A DNA stretch of 64,000 nt, from NCBI RefSeq assembly GCF_041361345.1, contig NZ_JBGKAD010000001.1:744001-808000 (forward strand), read 5' to 3'. This DNA is from Halobaculum sp. MBLA0147 (GTDB lineage: Archaea; Halobacteriota; Halobacteria; Halobacteriales; Haloferacaceae). Both the position numbers and the translations under genes were made by a program. Position 1 is the first letter of the stretch. Every line of letters starts with the position of its first letter. Below are positions 2-7,893 of this stretch, one piece after another. The notes beneath the pieces are model-generated. The model had not been told where the DNA came from. It saw only the letters and a list, made by a program, of their open reading frames with translations, and did not search any database.

Positions 2-1594
2 GAGGTCGCACTGGATCGAGTCGCGTTCCTGAGTGCCACCCCAGACGACCGACAAGAACGCCTGTTCGCCGACGCGATGGCGGCACCCTACCACCGCGTG
101 ACCGAGGGGACGACGGACGAGCGGCGAGCGTTCCTCGACGACCCGGGCGACGCGTTCCAGCCGGTCATGCCACCGGTGGAGTTGGACGTGCGGACTGCCC
201 CGACGTTCGGCACGGCCGACGTGTTGTTGGACGACGACCGCGAGGACTTGCTGTCGTTCTGTGCGGGCGACCGGACGGACCGTGACGGCCACGACAAGGT
301 GGCGGTCGTTCTCGACGGCGTCCACGAGGTCCAGCGGGTCCACGAGTTCCTCGCGGCCGAGCTGGACTGCCGTGTCGAGCGGATCGACGGGTTCCGCGGG
401 GAGGAGAAGAGCCGGAAACTCAGAGAGTTCGACGTACTCGTGAGCAACGCGGCAGTCGAGGTCGGCGTGGACTTCGAACTCGACCGCCTGCTGTTCGCGG
501 GTCACCGGAAGTCGAGTTTCCTCCAGCGACTCGGACGACTGCGGAGTCGCTCGGACGTGTGCGAGGCTCGGTGTTACGTTCCACGTCCCGTCGGGACGAC
601 ACTCTGTGAGCACGAGGCCGTCGCGGACGGAGCAGTGACACGGAGAGACTTCGACGACGTGCTCGCCGCCGCGTTCCCGGAGCCACGTCGGCCGGCGTCG
701 TTCGACTGGCGGTACTCCGGACCCGAGGCGGTCCACCACCTCGAGGACCGTGTCGGAGACGCCCGTCCGGATCGACGAGAGACGATCGCTCACCGCGGGC
801 GAGCACGGATCGACCGTCACTTCGTGGAGCCGTTCGACGACCTCGCCGACGCCGACCTTGACCGGGCGACCGACACCGTCGACTGGCGGACACTGGAACG
901 GCTCCAGTGGTACCGTGGTGACTCGATCCAGGCGCTGGTGTACGATCGGACCGGTGACGGCGACGGCGTCGTGCGAGCCTACGACGTGTTCTACCTCCTC
1001 CGGTACGGACGGGTCACCTTCCACGACCGCGAGACGTTCGAGCGGATCGTCCCCGACGACGAGCAGGCGACCGTGGATCGACTCGCACGGTACGTCGACG
1101 GGTTCTGTACCTTCGACGGCACGATCGAGACGACCGACGAGGGGTACGGACGGAGCGTCTCGTTCGCCGGGCCACGGCTCGGTACCCAGTTGCGCGAGGG
1201 TGGCGGGAAGCCGAGAGTGTTCGGCGGGCTCCAGGTTCGTGTCGACACCGAGCCGGGGCTGCCGAGCGTCGACGGCGTCGAGTGTTTCAACGACCGTCTG
1301 CGTTCGCGTCGCGACAGACTCGGGCCGGCCGCCGGCATCCTCGGCCACGCCGTCCCGAAGCGGCCGGCCGTCGTCACCCAACAGTACGGCCTCGACGACT
1401 TCTTCTTCCTCTACCCGGTCACGGCGCAAGGCGAGTCGGGGAGTCTCGCACTGGGGACCGACGCGTTGTACCTCCACTGTCACCAGTGCGAGGCCGAGGC
1501 CGACGACACCTCGGACGACGACGACCTGATCGGCGGCGTCGGCGACGGTGGTGACTGGTCGATCGGCGGCGTCGGCGACGGTGGTGACTGGTAG
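2..1594 (+). CDS. cas3: CRISPR helicase Cas3, C-terminal part (type I-D-like), truncated by window edge
   Basis: Open from the first base, so the N-terminus with the Walker motifs lies outside. The reading frame starts with helicase motif III (LSATP, bases 29-43). The second RecA lobe follows, with LDGVHEVQRV, then AVEVGVDFELDRLLFAG and motif VI QRLGRLRSR near base 540. The GVDF...SFLQRLGRLR block resembles the Cas3' helicase of type I-D more than the QAAGRCNR-type motif VI of I-B Cas3; the 37-38 nt repeats downstream agree. About 530 residues are visible after motif III, with no HD nuclease domain in view. The protein ends in an 11-residue tandem duplication. It would unwind DNA during interference. 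Stop codon lies inside cas4, so the genes are translationally coupled. I-B is the alternative; the effector genes upstream would decide. Confidence 0.85.
   Translation, partial: EVALDRVAFLSATPDDRQERLFADAMAAPYHRVTEGTTDERRAFLDDPGDAFQPVMPPVELDVRTAPTFGTADVLLDDDREDLLSFCAGDRTDRDGHDKVAVVLDGVHEVQRVHEFLAAELDCRVERIDGFRGEEKSRKLREFDVLVSNAAVEVGVDFELDRLLFAGHRKSSFLQRLGRLRSRSDVCEARCYVPRPVGTTLCEHEAVADGAVTRRDFDDVLAAAFPEPRRPASFDWRYSGPEAVHHLEDRVGDARPDRRETIAHRGRARIDRHFVEPFDDLADADLDRATDTVDWRTLERLQWYRGDSIQALVYDRTGDGDGVVRAYDVFYLLRYGRVTFHDRETFERIVPDDEQATVDRLARYVDGFCTFDGTIETTDEGYGRSVSFAGPRLGTQLREGGGKPRVFGGLQVRVDTEPGLPSVDGVECFNDRLRSRRDRLGPAAGILGHAVPKRPAVVTQQYGLDDFFFLYPVTAQGESGSLALGTDALYLHCHQCEAEADDTSDDDDLIGGVGDGGDWSIGGVGDGGDW
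1528..1593 (+). repeat. 33-bp tandem duplication at the cas3 end/cas4 start
   Basis: Two adjacent 33-bp units (1528-1560 and 1561-1593) are identical over 32 positions and differ only at the last base. In cas3 they encode the repeated peptide IGGVGDGGDW. In the cas4 frame each copy carries a GTG-GTG pair, so the candidate start codons of cas4 (1548/1551 and 1581/1584) are duplicated too. Confidence 0.95.
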
Positions 1595-2228
1595 TGACCG
1601 CGTCCAGTTTAGAGACGAACTCGTCCACGTCAGCGCGCTCAACGAGTACGTCTACTGTCCAAGGCGGTTCTACTACCAGCGGTACCACGACGAGATCGGG
1701 AGGCCGTACGAACTCGTCGACGGCCGGTCGAAACACGACGGCCAGGCCCGTCGTGGCGGCTGGGTTCGCGAGCGGTACTTCCGTTCCGAGGACCTGGGAC
1801 TGCACGGGAAACTCGACCTGATCGAGAGCGACGGCGACGTACTCACGCCGGTCGAGCGGAAGCGTGCCGAGAGCGAGACCTACTTCGCGAGCGACGAAGT
1901 CCAACTGGCCGGCTACTGTATGCTACTGGAGGCGGTGACCGGGGAGCCGGTCAACGTCGGGTACGTCTACCTCTACTCGACGGACGAACGCCACAGCGTC
2001 CGGATCACCGACCGCCACCGGGAGACGGTCCACGAGATCGTCTCCCAGATCGAGTCGATGCGTGTCGATACGATCCCACCACTCACCGACAACCCGAGCA
2101 AGTGCGAGGCCTGTTCGGCTCGCACCTACTGCATGCCCGAAGAGACGGCTCGACTGGAACCCGAGCGCGCTCGCGGCACTGGCTGGGAGAATCCCGACGC
2201 CGTCTCGCTCGGGGGTGAGGAGTCGTGA
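1584..2228 (+). CDS. cas4: CRISPR adaptation nuclease Cas4
   Basis: RecB-like nuclease that trims prespacers and helps choose PAM-flanked ends before Cas1-Cas2 integration. Four cysteines for an iron-sulfur cluster are visible (with this start: C25 in YVYCPRRFYY, then C174, C177 and C183). The nuclease core shows GKLDLIES, PVERKRAE and QLAGYCMLLE, the usual D...ExK...QxxxY pattern. About 214 residues, normal for the family. Start is uncertain: GTG codons at 1548, 1551, 1581 and 1584 are all in frame because the region is duplicated. I chose 1584 because family members begin shortly before the HVSALNEY block and because it overlaps the cas3 stop. The stop overlaps the cas1 GTG by 4 bases. Confidence 0.92.
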   Translation: MTGSDRVQFRDELVHVSALNEYVYCPRRFYYQRYHDEIGRPYELVDGRSKHDGQARRGGWVRERYFRSEDLGLHGKLDLIESDGDVLTPVERKRAESETYFASDEVQLAGYCMLLEAVTGEPVNVGYVYLYSTDERHSVRITDRHRETVHEIVSQIESMRVDTIPPLTDNPSKCEACSARTYCMPEETARLEPERARGTGWENPDAVSLGGEES

Positions 2229-3220
2229 AGTCTCCCGAGGGGATGTTCGACGAGTCGGTGGTGTTCGTCACCACGCAGGGTGCACAGATCCGGACGGACG
2301 GCGGCCGTGTCGTCGTCTGGGACGTGGACGGCGACGACGGGGAACTCGCGACGTTCCCGATCGAGAAACTGGACACGATCAACGTGTTCGGTGGGGTCAA
2401 CTTCTCGACGCCGTTCGTCGCCGAGGCGAACGACCACGGGATCGTGTTGAACTACTTCACACAGCACGGAGACTACCGCGGGAGTTTCGTCCCCGAACGG
2501 AACACGATCGCCGAGGTGCGGCGGGCACAGTACGCGTTGGGCGACGAGGGTGAACTCGCGATCGCGCGGGCGATGATCGCCGCGAAGATTCGCAACGCTC
2601 GCACGCTCCTCGCGCGGAAGGGTGTCACCGGCACGGAGTTCCTCGCGGATCTCCAAGCGCGGGCCAGAGAGGCCGGGAGTGCCGACGACCTCCGCGGGAC
2701 CGAAGGCGAGGCAGCCGAGCGGTACTTCTCCCGGCTCGACGAGACGCTGACGGACGGCTGGACGTTCGAGTCGCGGTCGAAACGCCCACCGGAGGATCAC
2801 GTCAACTCGTTGCTGTCGCTGACGTACGTGATGGTGAAAAACGAGGTGTTGGCCGCGTTGCGGCAGTACAACCTCGATCCGTTCCTCGGCGTGCTCCACG
2901 CCGACCGGCACGGTCGCCCGTCGCTCGCGTTGGACCTCCAAGAGGAGTTCCGCCCGATCTTCTGTGACGCGTTCGTCACCCGGCTGGTGAATCGCGGGAC
3001 GATCCAGCACGACCAGTTCACGGCGGACAACCACCTCGCGGACGACGCCTTCCAGACGTACCTCGGGAAGTTCGACGACTACATGCAAGAGCAGTTCACG
3101 CACCCGTACTTCGAGTACGAGGTGACGCGCCGGAAGGCGATCCGCCAGCAGGCGATCCTGTTGCGGAAGGCGATCACGGGCGAGTTGGACGAGTACCACG
3201 CGCTGGAGGTGTCGAAGTAG
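2225..3220 (+). CDS. cas1: CRISPR integrase Cas1
   Basis: Metal-dependent integrase that, with Cas2, inserts spacers at the leader-repeat junction. 331 residues: an N-terminal beta domain (about 1-75) and a C-terminal helical catalytic domain. Likely metal ligands are E207 (in MVKNEVL), H225 (in GVLHADRHG) and D237 (in ALDLQEEFRP). Starts with GTG in a GTGA overlap with the cas4 stop and ends in a one-base overlap with the cas2 GTG, so cas4-cas1-cas2 are one translational unit. Nothing suggests damage; all catalytic blocks are intact, so adaptation is probably still possible. Confidence 0.97.
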   Translation: MKSPEGMFDESVVFVTTQGAQIRTDGGRVVVWDVDGDDGELATFPIEKLDTINVFGGVNFSTPFVAEANDHGIVLNYFTQHGDYRGSFVPERNTIAEVRRAQYALGDEGELAIARAMIAAKIRNARTLLARKGVTGTEFLADLQARAREAGSADDLRGTEGEAAERYFSRLDETLTDGWTFESRSKRPPEDHVNSLLSLTYVMVKNEVLAALRQYNLDPFLGVLHADRHGRPSLALDLQEEFRPIFCDAFVTRLVNRGTIQHDQFTADNHLADDAFQTYLGKFDDYMQEQFTHPYFEYEVTRRKAIRQQAILLRKAITGELDEYHALEVSK

Positions 3221-3492
3221 TGCACCTCCTCGTGGCCTACGACGTGAGCGACGACGCGAACCGGCGGCGGGTGTACCGGACGCTCCAACGCTACGGCGCC
3301 TGGAAGCAGTACTCCGTGTTCGAACTGGAAGTGTCGAAGACCGAGCGCGTAGAGCTAGAAGACGAGTTGGCGGACGAAATCGACGCCGACGACGGCGACC
3401 GCGTGAAGCTCTACCGACTGTGTGCGAGCTGTGAGTCCGAGACGACCACCCTGGGTGCCGAGCCCGCCGACGAGCAGTCGAACGTGGTCTGA
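3220..3492 (+). CDS. cas2: CRISPR adaptation protein Cas2
   Basis: Small dimeric protein that bridges two Cas1 dimers in the integration complex. 90 residues with the ferredoxin-like fold signature: HLLVAYDVSDDANRRRVYR at the N-terminus with the conserved Asp, and RVKLYRLCASC as the later strand. GTG start overlaps the cas1 stop. Last gene of the cas operon; the leader and array follow in the same direction. Confidence 0.97.
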   Translation: MHLLVAYDVSDDANRRRVYRTLQRYGAWKQYSVFELEVSKTERVELEDELADEIDADDGDRVKLYRLCASCESETTTLGAEPADEQSNVV

Positions 3493-3610
3493 TCCGCCCG
3501 GTTACGTGGACCTTTTTGAAGGCTCTGTACGGCGGGGGTCCACGTAACCAGCCCTTCGCGTGCGGTGTGCAGAGAAAGCTATAGGTGGTGTGCGGCGTAT
3601 ATCACCCCCT
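3493..3610 (+). promoter_or_regulatory. CRISPR leader with a perfect inverted repeat
   Basis: The 118 bases between cas2 and the first repeat hold no gene. They contain GGTTACGTGGACC (3500-3512) and its exact reverse complement GGTCCACGTAACC (3537-3549), separated by 24 bases that include a T-run. AT-richer stretches that could act as the array TATA box are GCTATAGG (about 3575-3582) and GTATATCA (about 3594-3601); the first is at the better distance from the first repeat. Assigned as leader because it adjoins cas2, the array reads onward in the same direction, and the degenerate repeat is at the far end. Confidence 0.8.
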
Positions 3611-6062
3611 GTCGCAGCGGCCCAGGAAACCCATCTCGGGATTGAAACAGGACGACGACGGAGAGACGGAGGTGGCCGGATGGTCGCAGCGGCCCAGGAA
3701 ACCCATCTCGGGATTGAAACGAGACGACGAACCTCACGCAGGGGGACGCGTTCTACGTCGCAGCGGCCCAGGAAACCCATCTCGGGATTGAAACAGTCAG
3801 AGGGCTCGTCAGTCACGTCTCCGGGCACGTCGCAGCGGCCCAGGAAACCCATCTCGGGATTGAAACAAGAACGCAGAAGCGACCCCGGTCGCCACGACCC
3901 GTCGCAGCGGCCCAGGAAACCCATCTCGGGATTGAAACAACCCCGCGGCGAAGCCGACACCGACCCCGACCGCCAGGTCGCAGCGGCCCAGGAAACCCAT
4001 CTCGGGATTGAAACGGAGACACAGGTCGGGCGCGCCGCGCGCGAACAGCTGATGTCGCAGCGGCCCAGGAAACCCATCTCGGGATTGAAACAGGTGCGTG
4101 AGCGTGTTGGAGGTGAGGAGTCGTGAGGTCGCAGCGGCCCAGGAAACCCATCTCGGGATTGAAACCGTGCCGCTCGCGTCCGTCCACGCGATCGTGACCC
4201 GGTCGCAGCGGCCCAGGAAACCCATCTCGGGATTGAAACGATCTCCACGACACGGCGTCCGTACGGCGTGATCGTCGCAGCGGCCCAGGAAACCCATCTC
4301 GGGATTGAAACAGGTCGTCTCACTGACCCACACCGTCCAGAAGGAGCGTCGCAGCGGCCCAGGAAACCCATCTCGGGATTGAAACCGGGCGAGGTGATGG
4401 GGGACGACTACAAGATCGGCCTGGTCGCAGCGGCCCAGGAAACCCATCTCGGGATTGAAACGGCAAAACGTACGTCCGTGACCAGCCCGGTGGCGAGTCG
4501 CAGCGGCCCAGGAAACCCATCTCGGGATTGAAACGGCAACACGGCCGGCCCCGGCGTCGGTGACGACTCGGTCGCAGCGGCCCAGGAAACCCATCTCGGG
4601 ATTGAAACAGGTAGCCGCCGCCCGCCACGGCCGCCTTCACGGCCGTCGCGACGGGGAGGAAACCCATCTCGGGATTGAAACAGGAGTTGTGCAGACGCTA
4701 CTCGAAGATCTCGAAGGTCGCGACGGGGAGGAAACCCATCTCGGGATTGAAACTGAGCGACGACGTGAGCGTCGTCTCGGCGCTGCGTCGCGACGGGGAG
4801 GAAACCCATCTCGGGATTGAAACGCCGCGCCGTCGACGACGACGACCTCGTGACGGTCGGTCGCGACGGGGAGGAAACCCATCTCGGGATTGAAACTCCA
4901 TCTCCTGCAACATGTCTCGGATCGCGTGGAACGGTCGCGACGGGGAGGAAACCCATCTCGGGATTGAAACACGGCCAGTTGCAAGAGATCGGGAAGATCG
5001 TCGTGACGTCGCGACGGGGAGGAAACCCACCTCGGGATTGAAACACGTACGACGTGTTCCCGTTTTGCCGGATCGGTCGCGTCGCGACGGGGAGGAAACC
5101 CACCTCGGGATTGAAACAGCGTCTGCTCCACGCGTCGGCGGCTGAGCGACCGTCGCGACGGGGAGGAAACCCACCTCGGGATTGAAACCGGGGAGACGGT
5201 GATCGTCGCCGCCACGCTCGGGGTCGCGACGGGGAGGAAACCCACCTCGGGATTGAAACCGTACCTGGATCTCGTCGTCCTGCCGCACCGGCTGGTCGCG
5301 ACGGGGAGGAAACCCACCTCGGGATTGAAACAGGGTCTTCCGGAGCAGTTCGTGACTCGACCGACCGGCCGGGTCGCGACGGGGAGGAAACCCACCTCGG
5401 GATTGAAACCTGGCGGGAGTGACCTTTCCCAGAAACGTGGGGTGTCGCGACGGGGAGGAAACCCACCTCGGGATTGAAACGCCTCGGCATCGGTGCGACG
5501 CAGCTGGGCGCGGCCGTCGCGACGGGGAGGAAACCCACCTCGGGATTGAAACTCGCTCTCGTGGGGGTTGTCGTCGCGGGTCCGGGCATCGTCGCGACGG
5601 GGAGGAAACCCACCTCGGGATTGAAACCGTTCACTCTCGGCCTGTTCTTCGGCCTCGGCGAGGAGGTCGCGACGGGGAGGAAACCCACCTCGGGATTGAA
5701 ACAACGCCAGCGCGTCCGTCCCGAGTTGCGGGAGCCACGTCGCGACGGGGAGGAAACCCACCTCGGGATTGAAACCGGACCTCCGTCGTGGGTTCGTCGC
5801 GATCGCGGTCGTGTCGCGACGGGGAGGAAACCCACCTCGGGATTGAAACACGGCACGCTCGAGGGGACGGGTTTCCGGGTCAAAATGTCGCGACGGGGAG
5901 GAAACCCACCTCGGGATTGAAACTCGACGCTCGCCGATCGGTTGGAATCGGAGTTGCAGGAGTCGCGACGGGGAGGAAACCCACCTCGGGATTGAAACCG
6001 CTGGGTGAAGTCCGACAGCGTCACGCGGTCGAGTCGCGACGGGGAGGAAACCCACCTCGGGA
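3611..6062 (+). CRISPR. CRISPR array: 34 repeats, 33 spacers, three repeat versions
   Basis: Fourteen 38-nt repeats of version A (first at 3611-3648, last at 4571-4608) begin GTCGCAGCGGCCCAGG. Five 37-nt repeats of version B (4645-4681 to 4934-4970) begin GTCGCGACGGGGAGG. Fourteen full repeats of version C (5008-5044 to 5962-5998) equal B except CCCACCTC for CCCATCTC. The final copy (6033-6062) is cut after 30 bases. All full repeats end GGGATTGAAAC, giving an 8-nt ATTGAAAC crRNA handle if Cas6 cuts before it. The CCC...GGG stem sits just upstream of the handle, and the T/C change falls in its loop. Spacers are 33-41 nt, mostly 34-38, and none repeats another. Repeat length and 3' end agree with type I-D, though related I-B repeats cannot be excluded. 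Confidence 0.99.
6033..6062 (+). repeat. Truncated leader-distal CRISPR repeat
   Basis: Matches version C for its first 30 bases and then departs (ACCCGAG instead of ATTGAAAC). The Cas6 hairpin base and the handle are lost, so spacer 33 (5999-6032) would have an unprocessed 3' flank. It marks the old end of the array and confirms the orientation. Confidence 0.93.
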
Positions 6063-6319
6063 CCCGAGACGGAACCCACGGACTGACCATCACTCGAGAA
6101 CAGTCCATCCCCTCCAGATAGAGAACTCCTCCGAGCCACTGCTGTACCGCTCACCCTCGGCCACAGGTGACGGAGAACTAACACGTAACGTACCACAACG
6201 TTTTTCCCGCTCGCTACACGAGAGACGAACACGACTCTCCGGGGTCGTCACTCCACGCGCAGTAGAAGTGGCGAGGGTGTTAGGGCACCCTCACCGGGGT
6301 GTCGTAGGACCGAACACCC
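6063..6319. other. Intergenic region after the array
   Basis: No convincing gene. AACGTTTTTCCCG near 6195-6210 is promoter-like. GAGGGTG and CACCCTC form a 7-bp hairpin near 6274-6293, shortly before the start of the following gene. Confidence 0.4.
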
Positions 6320-6721
6320 ATGTGTGAATCCGACTCGCCGTCACAAGAGCGTGACGGACAGCCTGCCGCACAGGACACAGAGACGACCGCGACCGACGAC
6401 GCCCGCGGCTCCGAGCGACTGGCGACGACGTTCGACGCCCTCGCGACAGAAGTCCCGGAGCAGACGGCACTCCCCGACCGGCGACGCGACGCACTCGCCG
6501 ACCTGTGCCGTCGCGTCGCGAGCACACTCCGGCGTGACGACGCACTCGGACCCGTGGACGCGCTGGCGACGGAGGCCGTCGAGGCCGTCGGCGATCTGGG
6601 CGACGAGCGCGACACCGGCGCGGCGACCCGTCGCGACGGCGACGCCGCCGCCCGCCGCGAGGCCGCAGACGTACTGTTCCAACTCCTGACGGCCGTCGAG
6701 GAGACGCGGACGCTGCGGTAG
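6320..6721 (+). CDS. Small acidic protein of unknown function
   Basis: 133 residues, not recognised. Chosen over the opposite-strand readings because the composition is acidic and Ala-rich as expected for a haloarchaeal cytosolic protein. Residues 1-35 are disordered-looking (Ser, Asp, Gln, Thr). Residues 35-130 look like two or three amphipathic helices (for example ALADLCRRVASTLRR and REAADVLFQLLTAVEE). No signal peptide, membrane segment or Cys pair. It lies between the CRISPR array and the convergent cbf5 gene and may belong with neither; a CRISPR role would be pure speculation. Confidence 0.6.
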   Translation: MCESDSPSQERDGQPAAQDTETTATDDARGSERLATTFDALATEVPEQTALPDRRRDALADLCRRVASTLRRDDALGPVDALATEAVEAVGDLGDERDTGAATRRDGDAAARREAADVLFQLLTAVEETRTLR

Positions 6722-6840: not shown

Positions 6841-7893
6841 TCACACCAGTACGCGTTCTAACGACACGACTTCCCCGGAATCGGCGCTGGGGTCGCCGAC
6901 GAGCGTCCCGAGACAGACGGCCGCCCCCTGCGGCGTGAGACAGACCACGAGATCACCCTGCGTCGGCTCCGCAGCAGCGTCGTCACCCGCACCACCGGCA
7001 CCGTCACCCGCACCACCGGCACCGTCACCCGCACCACCGGCACCGTCACCCGCACCACCGGCACCGTCACCCGCACCACCGGCACCGTCACCCGCACCAC
7101 CGGCACCGTCACCCGTGCCACCCTCGCCGACTCGTACCGGCTCCGGCGCGGGGTCGACGGCCAACACGCCGGGGGCGTACACCGGCGCGCCCTGGGCCAC
7201 CTCGCGGGCGGCGTTCTCCGGGATCGTCACCCGCGGGAGGTGTCGCAGCGCACGCTCGGCGGGTGCGACCGCCTCGGCCAGCGGGTCTGACTCACCCTCG
7301 TCGTCGAACGCCAGCGCGTCCGCGAACTCGTGGATCGTCACGAGGTCGCGGTCGTCGAACGGGTCCGTCCCGACCCGCCGCAGGTTCCCCATGTGCGCGC
7401 CGGTGCCCAGCGCCAACCCGAGATCGTGACACAGCTTCCGCACGTAGGTGCCCGACTCACAGCGAATCCGCAACAGCACCTGCCGGTCGCTGTGGTCCAA
7501 CACCTCCAGGTCGTACACCGAGCGCGTCCGCAGGCGTCGCCGGACGGCGGACTTCCGCGGGGGTTTCTGGTACAGTTCCGTCTCGAACGCGGCGAGCACC
7601 GACTCGAGATCCGCCGGCGCCGAGCGGTGGAGTTCCAACACGGCGACGTACGTCTTCGCACCCTCGAGGAACACCTGCGCGAGCCGTGTCGCGTCGCCCA
7701 AGAGAATCGGCAGACACCCCGTCACCTTGGGGTCGAGCGTCCCCGCGTGGGCGGCGCGGTCGACACCCGCGAGGTCGCGGACCCACGCCGTCACCTCGTG
7801 GGCGGAGGGGCCGGGCGGCTTGTCGAGGTTGACGACGCCGAAGGAGAGCGTCTCGCGGGGCGAGCGGTCCGACGGGGCGGGACGCAGTGGCAT
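6841..7893 (-). CDS. cbf5: H/ACA RNA-guided pseudouridine synthase Cbf5 (TruB family) with low-complexity insert
   Basis: Catalytic subunit of the archaeal H/ACA RNP; also able to make Psi55 in tRNA. The catalytic domain holds HAGTLDPKVTG with the nucleophile D54, LYQKPPRKSAVRRR and RCESGTYVRKLCHDLG. A C-terminal PUA domain (about 235-350) is interrupted by about 45 residues of GDGAGGA repeated six times (bases 6982-7107), followed by GDLVVCLTPQGAAVCLG where PUA resumes. Such an insert is not part of the family. Start ATG at 7893 is one base from the cmk stop, so cmk-cbf5 are one operon, as in many archaea. Confidence 0.95.
   Translation of the reverse strand: MPLRPAPSDRSPRETLSFGVVNLDKPPGPSAHEVTAWVRDLAGVDRAAHAGTLDPKVTGCLPILLGDATRLAQVFLEGAKTYVAVLELHRSAPADLESVLAAFETELYQKPPRKSAVRRRLRTRSVYDLEVLDHSDRQVLLRIRCESGTYVRKLCHDLGLALGTGAHMGNLRRVGTDPFDDRDLVTIHEFADALAFDDEGESDPLAEAVAPAERALRHLPRVTIPENAAREVAQGAPVYAPGVLAVDPAPEPVRVGEGGTGDGAGGAGDGAGGAGDGAGGAGDGAGGAGDGAGGAGDGAGGAGDDAAAEPTQGDLVVCLTPQGAAVCLGTLVGDPSADSGEVVSLERVLV
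6982..7107 (-). repeat. 21-bp tandem repeat, six perfect copies, inside cbf5
   Basis: Unit begins GTCACCCGCACCACC on the plus strand; copies start at 6982, 7003, 7024, 7045, 7066 and 7087, with a degenerate seventh at 7108. The period keeps the frame and encodes a seven-residue Gly/Ala/Asp unit. The perfect identity suggests recent expansion by slippage. Confidence 0.97.

What the first reader, a model, noticed from the sequence alone, without database searches (positions are those of the whole stretch)
3611..6062. CRISPR array records an ordered, three-stage change of the repeat
Repeat versions are not mixed: 14 leader-proximal repeats are all version A, the following five all B, the remaining 15 all C. 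New repeats are copied from the leader-proximal one, so C is oldest, B arose by one T/C change in the loop of the putative Cas6 stem, and A arose from B (it keeps the CATCTC of B) by a clustered change of 7 bases (GACGGGG) into 8 (AGCGGCCC). The 3' half with stem and handle is untouched; only the 5' part near the integration site changed. A clustered change in one step suggests recombination or an aberrant repeat duplication rather than point mutation, and shows that adaptation tolerates 37 and 38 nt.
Basis: partly seen in the sequence, partly recalled or inferred. Interest (0 to 1): 0.8.

Follow-up and report, generated by a model that had tools for sequence, protein, structure and literature searches.

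The report
CRISPR repeat patched from neighbouring array
A salt-loving archaeon's CRISPR memory array shows, in order, that its repeat first changed by one letter and then had its front part replaced by the matching part of the repeat of a second array on the other side of the same cas genes, so the array records DNA exchange between immune memory banks.

Summary
In detail: 14 A, 5 B and 14 full C repeats plus one truncated C, with no mixing. The same genome has a second array 10.9 kb away, across the type I-D cas operon and facing the opposite way, with 35 copies of repeat D (38 nt). Repeat A is a chimera: its first 23 nt equal D and its last 25 nt equal B, with 10 nt in common. In 392 genomes the swapped-in block (CAGCGGCCCAG) occurs only in this one. 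Among 92 surveyed arrays the loop that A shares with B occurs only in this array. A congener's arrays all carry the old GACGGGG block, so C to B to A is the right direction. Leaders of the two arrays differ beyond 9 nt from the repeat, so at most 32 bp moved. No array holds the reciprocal chimera. Best explanation: a non-reciprocal, short-tract transfer into the leader-proximal repeat, later copied by spacer acquisition. Elsewhere in haloarchaea, paired arrays share one repeat half in 16 of 30 pairs and both halves in none, and several show swapped tails. Whether RadA recombination or gap filling during integration did it is unresolved.

The parts
77..1594 (+). C-terminal part of cas3' helicase (type I-D); gene begins before the window
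   Evidence: TIGR03158 cas3_cyano 100.5 bits, cut-off 69.1
1548..2228 (+). cas4 (start codon uncertain)
   Evidence: TIGR00372 106.6 bits, cut-off 65; PF01930
2225..3220 (+). cas1, type I-D like
   Evidence: TIGR00287 cas1 232.7 bits, cut-off 71.7; best model TIGR04093 Cas1d 375.6 bits, just under its cut-off of 385
3220..3492 (+). cas2
   Evidence: TIGR01573 57.1 bits, cut-off 24.5
3493..3610 (+). leader of array 1; inverted repeat TTACGTGGACC...GGTCCACGTAA far from the array, conserved CACCCCCT at the repeat junction
   Evidence: alignment with leaders of arrays 2, 3 and 4
3602..3633 (+). largest possible transferred tract (32 bp: 9 leader + 23 repeat); the smallest is the 8-nt block 3616-3623
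   Evidence: shared identity of array 1 and array 2 around the block
3611..4608 (+). 14 repeats of version A (38 nt), newest
   Evidence: exact matches
4609..4644 (+). spacer at the A/B junction, 36 nt, ordinary
   Evidence: no leader similarity
4645..4970 (+). 5 repeats of version B (37 nt)
   Evidence: exact matches
5008..5998 (+). 14 full repeats of version C (37 nt), oldest
   Evidence: exact matches
6033..6062 (+). terminal repeat, version C truncated after 30 nt
6320..6721 (+). small gene beyond the trailer, no known family; the same order trailer-element-gene occurs at a GACGGGG array of the congener

Best explanation
This is the cas2-side array of a haloarchaeal type I-D CRISPR system. 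Its repeat changed in two different ways. First, a point mutation in the hairpin loop of the leader-proximal repeat turned C into B. Second, 14 acquisitions ago, the 5' part of the leader-proximal B repeat was overwritten by the 5' part of the repeat (D) of the partner array on the other side of the cas operon. That gave the chimera A and lengthened the repeat from 37 to 38 nt. The transfer was non-reciprocal and short: at least 8 and at most 32 bp, bounded by TCACCCCCTGTCGC and AGGAAACCCA, which both arrays share. Every later spacer acquisition copied A. Shown: the block order, the chimera and its tract limits, the matching donor sequence in the genome, the direction, and the absence of a reciprocal product. 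Inferred: that array 2 itself was the donor, that it happened as one event, and that it was gene conversion or a template switch, possibly while the gap left by spacer integration was filled from the leader's 3' end.
For: Array 2 (C1:734144-736693, minus strand) has 35 repeats, all D except two with one point change; leaders 1 and 2 face each other across the cas operon. A equals D over 23 nt and B over 25 nt, overlapping by 10. The block CAGCGGCCCAG is in 1 of 392 genomes, this one, and only in arrays 1 and 2; the A/D 5' half is absent from viral contigs. Loop ATCTC is found as an established version only in A and B among 92 arrays from 47 genomes, so A's 3' half comes from B. In the congener G001 (Cas1 88%) all arrays found carry GACGGGG, with a conserved trailer-element-gene order. 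Leaders 1 and 2 agree at only 41 of the 63 positions next to the array, with full identity only over the last 9 nt, which limits the tract. Elsewhere, in-array changes of 3 or more bases usually involve a version or half found in the partner array (G268, G169, G202, G338), while one-base changes mostly do not.
Against: Only one genome of this species was available, so no strain was seen that stops at B. A shared tract of 9-14 nt on one side and 10 nt on the other is short for classical homologous recombination. Array 3 carries a near relative of the block (AGCGGCC), so another donor, or an unseen array, is possible. Cell-level mechanism was not tested.
Confidence: 0.8

Rival explanations
1. 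Crossover between the two inward-facing arrays inverted the cas cassette and made the chimeric first repeat.
For: The arrays are inverted copies flanking the cassette. Reciprocal tail swaps that fit cassette inversion are seen in G268, G169 and G202.
Against: The reciprocal chimera (GACGGGG block with ACACC loop) is absent from array 2, whose 35 repeats are D from leader to trailer. The old tail still lies on the cas2 side, with the same downstream element and gene order as in the congener.
Confidence: 0.08
2. The leader end with A repeats came from another strain or array and was joined to a B/C array.
For: A leader-proximal block with one version throughout is what a fusion would leave.
Against: A shares B's rare ATCTC loop. 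There is no internal leader remnant at the junction. The A block occurs in no other of 392 genomes and not in viral contigs.
Confidence: 0.07
3. Independent clustered mutation or slippage created AGCGGCCC.
For: One-base switches do occur in these arrays (array 3, G395, G453).
Against: The new 8 nt equal the partner array's block exactly; for a random 8-mer and three other arrays of the genome this is about 5e-5 by simple arithmetic.
Confidence: 0.02

Closest known systems
Polarized spacer addition with copying of the leader-proximal repeat
   Same: Explains why versions lie in ordered blocks and why a single changed first repeat is inherited by all later repeats (background in PMC8047081).
   Different: By itself it explains inheritance of a change, not the origin of an 8-nt block identical to another array's repeat.
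Homologous recombination or misalignment between CRISPR repeats (deletions and duplications of spacer-repeat units, reviewed in PMC8047081)
   Same: Repeats act as sites of exchange.
   Different: There whole spacer-repeat units are lost or doubled within one array; here part of one repeat moved between two arrays and no spacer moved.
Gene conversion in polyploid haloarchaea (Lange et al. 2011 and Soppa 2011, cited in PMC10085750)
   Same: Non-reciprocal overwriting of one copy by another in the same kind of host.
   Different: Described for equalizing genome copies; here between two arrays, with a tract of 32 bp or less.
Ruler mechanism of repeat duplication in Haloarcula hispanica type I-B (Wang et al. 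2016, cited in PMC6895254; paper itself not held)
   Same: Explains how repeats of 37 and 38 nt can both be duplicated if cut sites are measured from motifs inside the repeat.
   Different: Different subtype; motifs and ruler were not tested for this I-D system.
Surveys of repeat mutations and multiple arrays (Mitrofanov et al. 2026, known here only through the editorial PMC13383573; Fehrenbach et al. 2026, PMC12814883)
   Same: Treat repeat change and multi-array genomes as evolutionary signals.
   Different: In the parts I could read, chimeric repeats between two arrays of one locus and tail swaps are not described. PMC12814883 reports multiple arrays with identical consensus repeats at 19.3% of Cas loci; none of the 30 pairs here are identical.

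Membership tests
Type I-D CRISPR-Cas | Cas10d/Csc3 | tested here: met
   TIGR03174 427.3 bits, cut-off 60; a C-terminal piece in the next frame 99.4 bits
Type I-D CRISPR-Cas | Csc2 (Cas7) and Csc1 (Cas5) | tested here: met
   TIGR03157 292.1 bits, cut-off 38; TIGR03159 169.4 bits, cut-off 41.4
Type I-D CRISPR-Cas | Separate Cas3' helicase of the I-D kind | tested here: met
   TIGR03158 100.5 bits, cut-off 69.1
Type I-D CRISPR-Cas | Cas1d | tested here: inconclusive
   Best model is TIGR04093 but 375.6 bits is under its cut-off of 385
Type I-D CRISPR-Cas | Working interference and adaptation | not testable with these tools
   Spacers had no credible match in phage or plasmid records; activity needs an experiment
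Gene conversion between paralogous arrays | Recipient carries donor sequence flanked by its own | tested here: met
   A = D over 23 nt + B over 25 nt
Gene conversion between paralogous arrays | Donor unchanged, no reciprocal product | tested here: met
   Array 2 is D throughout apart from two one-base variants; no GACGGGG/ACACC repeat
Gene conversion between paralogous arrays | Dependence on the recombination machinery (RadA) | not testable with these tools
   Needs an experiment
Cassette inversion by crossover between inverted arrays | Reciprocal exchange of array tails | tested here: not met
   Not met in the window genome; met in G268 and, on few copies, in G169 and G202

The most novel reading that the evidence does not exclude
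Spacer acquisition itself makes chimeric repeats. After Cas1-Cas2 joins a new spacer, the gap opposite the single-stranded first repeat is filled from the leader's 3' end. Because the leader end and the first bases of the repeat are identical in the arrays of the genome, the growing strand can copy the 5' block of another array and switch back at the conserved AGGAAACCCA. Repeats of the arrays in one cell would then evolve together, half by half.
Probability: 0.25. Interest if true: 0.8.

Novelty: new variant of a known kind. Interest (0 to 1): 0.58.

Why it matters
CRISPR arrays are read as one-way time lines, and repeats are treated as a fixed frame. Here the frame itself carries a relatively dated event with an identified likely source. 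The repeat was rebuilt from the neighbouring array, changed length, and went on being duplicated for 14 more acquisitions. Paired arrays in other haloarchaea share one repeat half far more often than arrays of different genomes do, and several have exchanged tails. Array order and repeat identity can therefore mislead spacer dating and repeat-based calls of array orientation or type. The pattern also offers a natural assay for recombination at CRISPR loci.

Tried and rejected
Dating by protospacers: the 33 spacers joined with N runs gave no match in phage records and one 31-nt, E=0.04 chance-level hit in a Prescottella plasmid. Import from viruses: repeat stretches of A/D and of B/C are absent from viral contigs. 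A leader-junction pattern scan of genome contigs returned unrelated bacteria only. Shared spacers among the four arrays, which would show larger exchanges: only two weak 14-nt overlaps between other arrays. Cassette inversion was considered and rejected for this locus, though it fits others. A single RNA fold was not informative.

Full report
Check of the observation. The window holds 33 full repeats between 3611 and 5998 in the order A14, B5, C14, followed by a C repeat cut after 30 nt at 6033-6062. There is no mixing; three contiguous blocks would arise by chance with p about 3e-13. A is 38 nt, B and C 37 nt. C to B is one C/T change. B to A replaces GACGGGG by AGCGGCCC and leaves the last 25 nt alone. 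Spacer length does not shift with repeat length.

Context. The array lies directly behind cas2 of a type I-D locus (csa3, cas6, cas10d, csc2, csc1, cas3', cas4, cas1, cas2). The genome holds four arrays of this repeat family. Array 2 (C1:734144-736693, minus strand) sits on the other side of the cas operon, next to csa3, with its leader facing leader 1. It has 35 repeats of D = GTCGCAGCGGCCCAGGAAACCCACACCGGGATTGAAAC, two of them with a single point change. Array 3 (C1:2019880 onward) has GTCGCAGCGGCCAGG... (37 nt) with an ordered one-base loop switch of its own: 9 newer CACTCC, then CACTAC. Array 4 (contig C6) has GTCGCAACACAGAGG.... Contig C6 holds a further array with a more distant repeat.

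Source of the change. A equals D over its first 23 nt and B over its last 25 nt; the overlap AGGAAACCCA is common to all three. In 392 genomes of the order the block with its surroundings (CAGCGGCCCAGRAAACCC) occurs only here, 14 + 34 times. In a survey of 92 arrays with 2587 repeats from 47 genomes, the loop ATCTC in its CATCTCGG context occurs only in A and B; one degenerate repeat of G409 holds CATCTCGC. A therefore combines a block known only from array 2 and a loop known as an established version only from array 1. The leaders limit the transferred stretch: next to the array, leaders 1 and 2 agree over 9 nt and then diverge (41 of 63 positions in all), so the tract is 8 to 32 bp. Array 2 has no reciprocal chimera. 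Non-reciprocal transfer, that is gene conversion or a template switch, is the simplest account.

Direction. Besides leader polarity and the truncated terminal C, the congener G001 (Cas1 88% identical) gives independent support. All its arrays that I found carry the GACGGGG block, with loops ACTGC or ACAAC; its assembly is a 74%-complete draft. The trailer of its array near cas2 is followed by the same element and a related small gene as in the window, although that unit is inverted relative to cas2. GACGGGG is thus the older block at this kind of site, and AGCGGCC(C) is found in the window genome in arrays 1 (new part), 2 and 3. The window array looks like concerted evolution of the repeat's 5' block caught part-way. 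That last sentence is inference.

Is it general? Thirty pairs of inward-facing arrays 7-14 kb apart were found in 29 genomes. Their leader-proximal repeats share only the 5' part in 7 pairs, only the 3' part in 9, neither in 14 and both in none. Between genomes the rates of sharing are 0.8% and 5.4%; common ancestry accounts for part of this excess. Of 56 arrays whose partner differs by 2 or more bases, 11 have older repeats closer to the partner's version than to their own; one of these is a mosaic array (G409) and one rests on a degenerate terminal repeat (G388). Unrelated versions give this result in 4.3% of cases. The clearest case is G268: left 30 X then 5 Y (plus a degenerate Y), right 41 Y then 8 X, which fits one inversion of the cas cassette by crossover between the arrays. 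G169 and G202 show the same on few copies. In G338 two old repeats equal the partner's version and differ from the newer ones only in the 5' part. One-base switches (C to B, array 3, G395, G453) fit plain mutation of the first repeat. These genomes were chosen by similarity of leader or Cas1 to the window, so the rates are not those of all I-D systems.

Mechanism. Shown: order, chimera, tract limits, candidate donor, direction, no reciprocal product. Inferred: identity of the donor array and one-step origin. Open: whether RadA-type conversion, known to be active in polyploid haloarchaea (cited in PMC10085750), or a template switch during gap filling after spacer integration did it. The second fits the position of the tract, which starts at the leader-repeat junction where fill-in would begin, and the shortness of the flanking identity; but 3'-part exchanges in other genomes show that not all exchange has this form. 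The tolerance of 38 nt agrees with ruler-type definition of the repeat end, reported for type I-B of Haloarcula hispanica (Wang et al. 2016, as cited in PMC6895254); I did not test it for I-D.

Stem. The CCC/GGG stem is supported by compensatory change across arrays (CCC/GGG 76, GCC/GGC 10, TCC/GGA 2). The C/T change of C to B lies in its 5-nt loop; the 3' eight bases ATTGAAAC are unchanged in all versions of this array.

Literature. Recombination between repeats, degenerate terminal repeats and array duplication are known (PMC8047081; PMC12814883), and repeat mutations have been surveyed (Mitrofanov et al. 2026, seen only through PMC13383573). In the held literature I found no description of a chimeric repeat made from two arrays of one locus and then amplified, nor of tail swaps between paired arrays; that is absence in a limited library.

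Verdict. New variant of a known kind; interest 0.58.

Noticed in passing
L137 and L138 (G268), L064/L065 (G169), L123/L124 (G202): Paired arrays with reciprocally swapped older repeats, as expected if the whole cas cassette was inverted by crossover between the two arrays.
   Followed up: partly
30 pairs of inward-facing arrays in 29 haloarchaeal genomes: No pair has identical repeats in both arrays, although 16 share exactly one half; unpaired arrays of one genome can be identical (5 of 33 comparisons, some of them duplicated regions). Possibly selection keeps the inverted pair different.
   Followed up: partly
L118 and L119 (G409): Two arrays whose repeats are a fine mixture of several 5' blocks and loops in many combinations, unlike the block order elsewhere.
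   Followed up: no
L010:7881-10200: Third array of the window genome shows its own ordered one-base loop switch: 9 newer CACTCC repeats, then CACTAC.
   Followed up: yes
window 3501-3548 and leaders of the other arrays: Leader inverted repeat TTACGTGGACC...GGTCCACGTAA around a TATA-like TTTTTGAA; the arms change between genomes. Identical over about 48 bp in arrays 1 and 2, while the array-near half of leader 1 is closer to array 3, so the leader may be a mosaic too.
   Followed up: partly
window 6263-6721; L061, L194, L195: A small gene of no known family with an upstream GTGGCGAGGGTGT(T/A)AGGGCACCCTCACC element lies beyond the trailer of the GACGGGG array; three array trailers in the congener have related genes nearby.
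   Followed up: partly
L061:9800-10649: In the congener the array and its trailing small gene are inverted relative to cas2 compared with the window.
   Followed up: partly
L011:3540-4274 and 6942-7417: Contig C6 (82 kb) carries two further arrays with repeats related to but distinct from the chromosomal ones.
   Followed up: no
window 6988-7112: Tandem 21-bp repeats in the C-terminal part of the 6841-7893 (minus strand) gene, coding GAGGAGD-type units.
   Followed up: no
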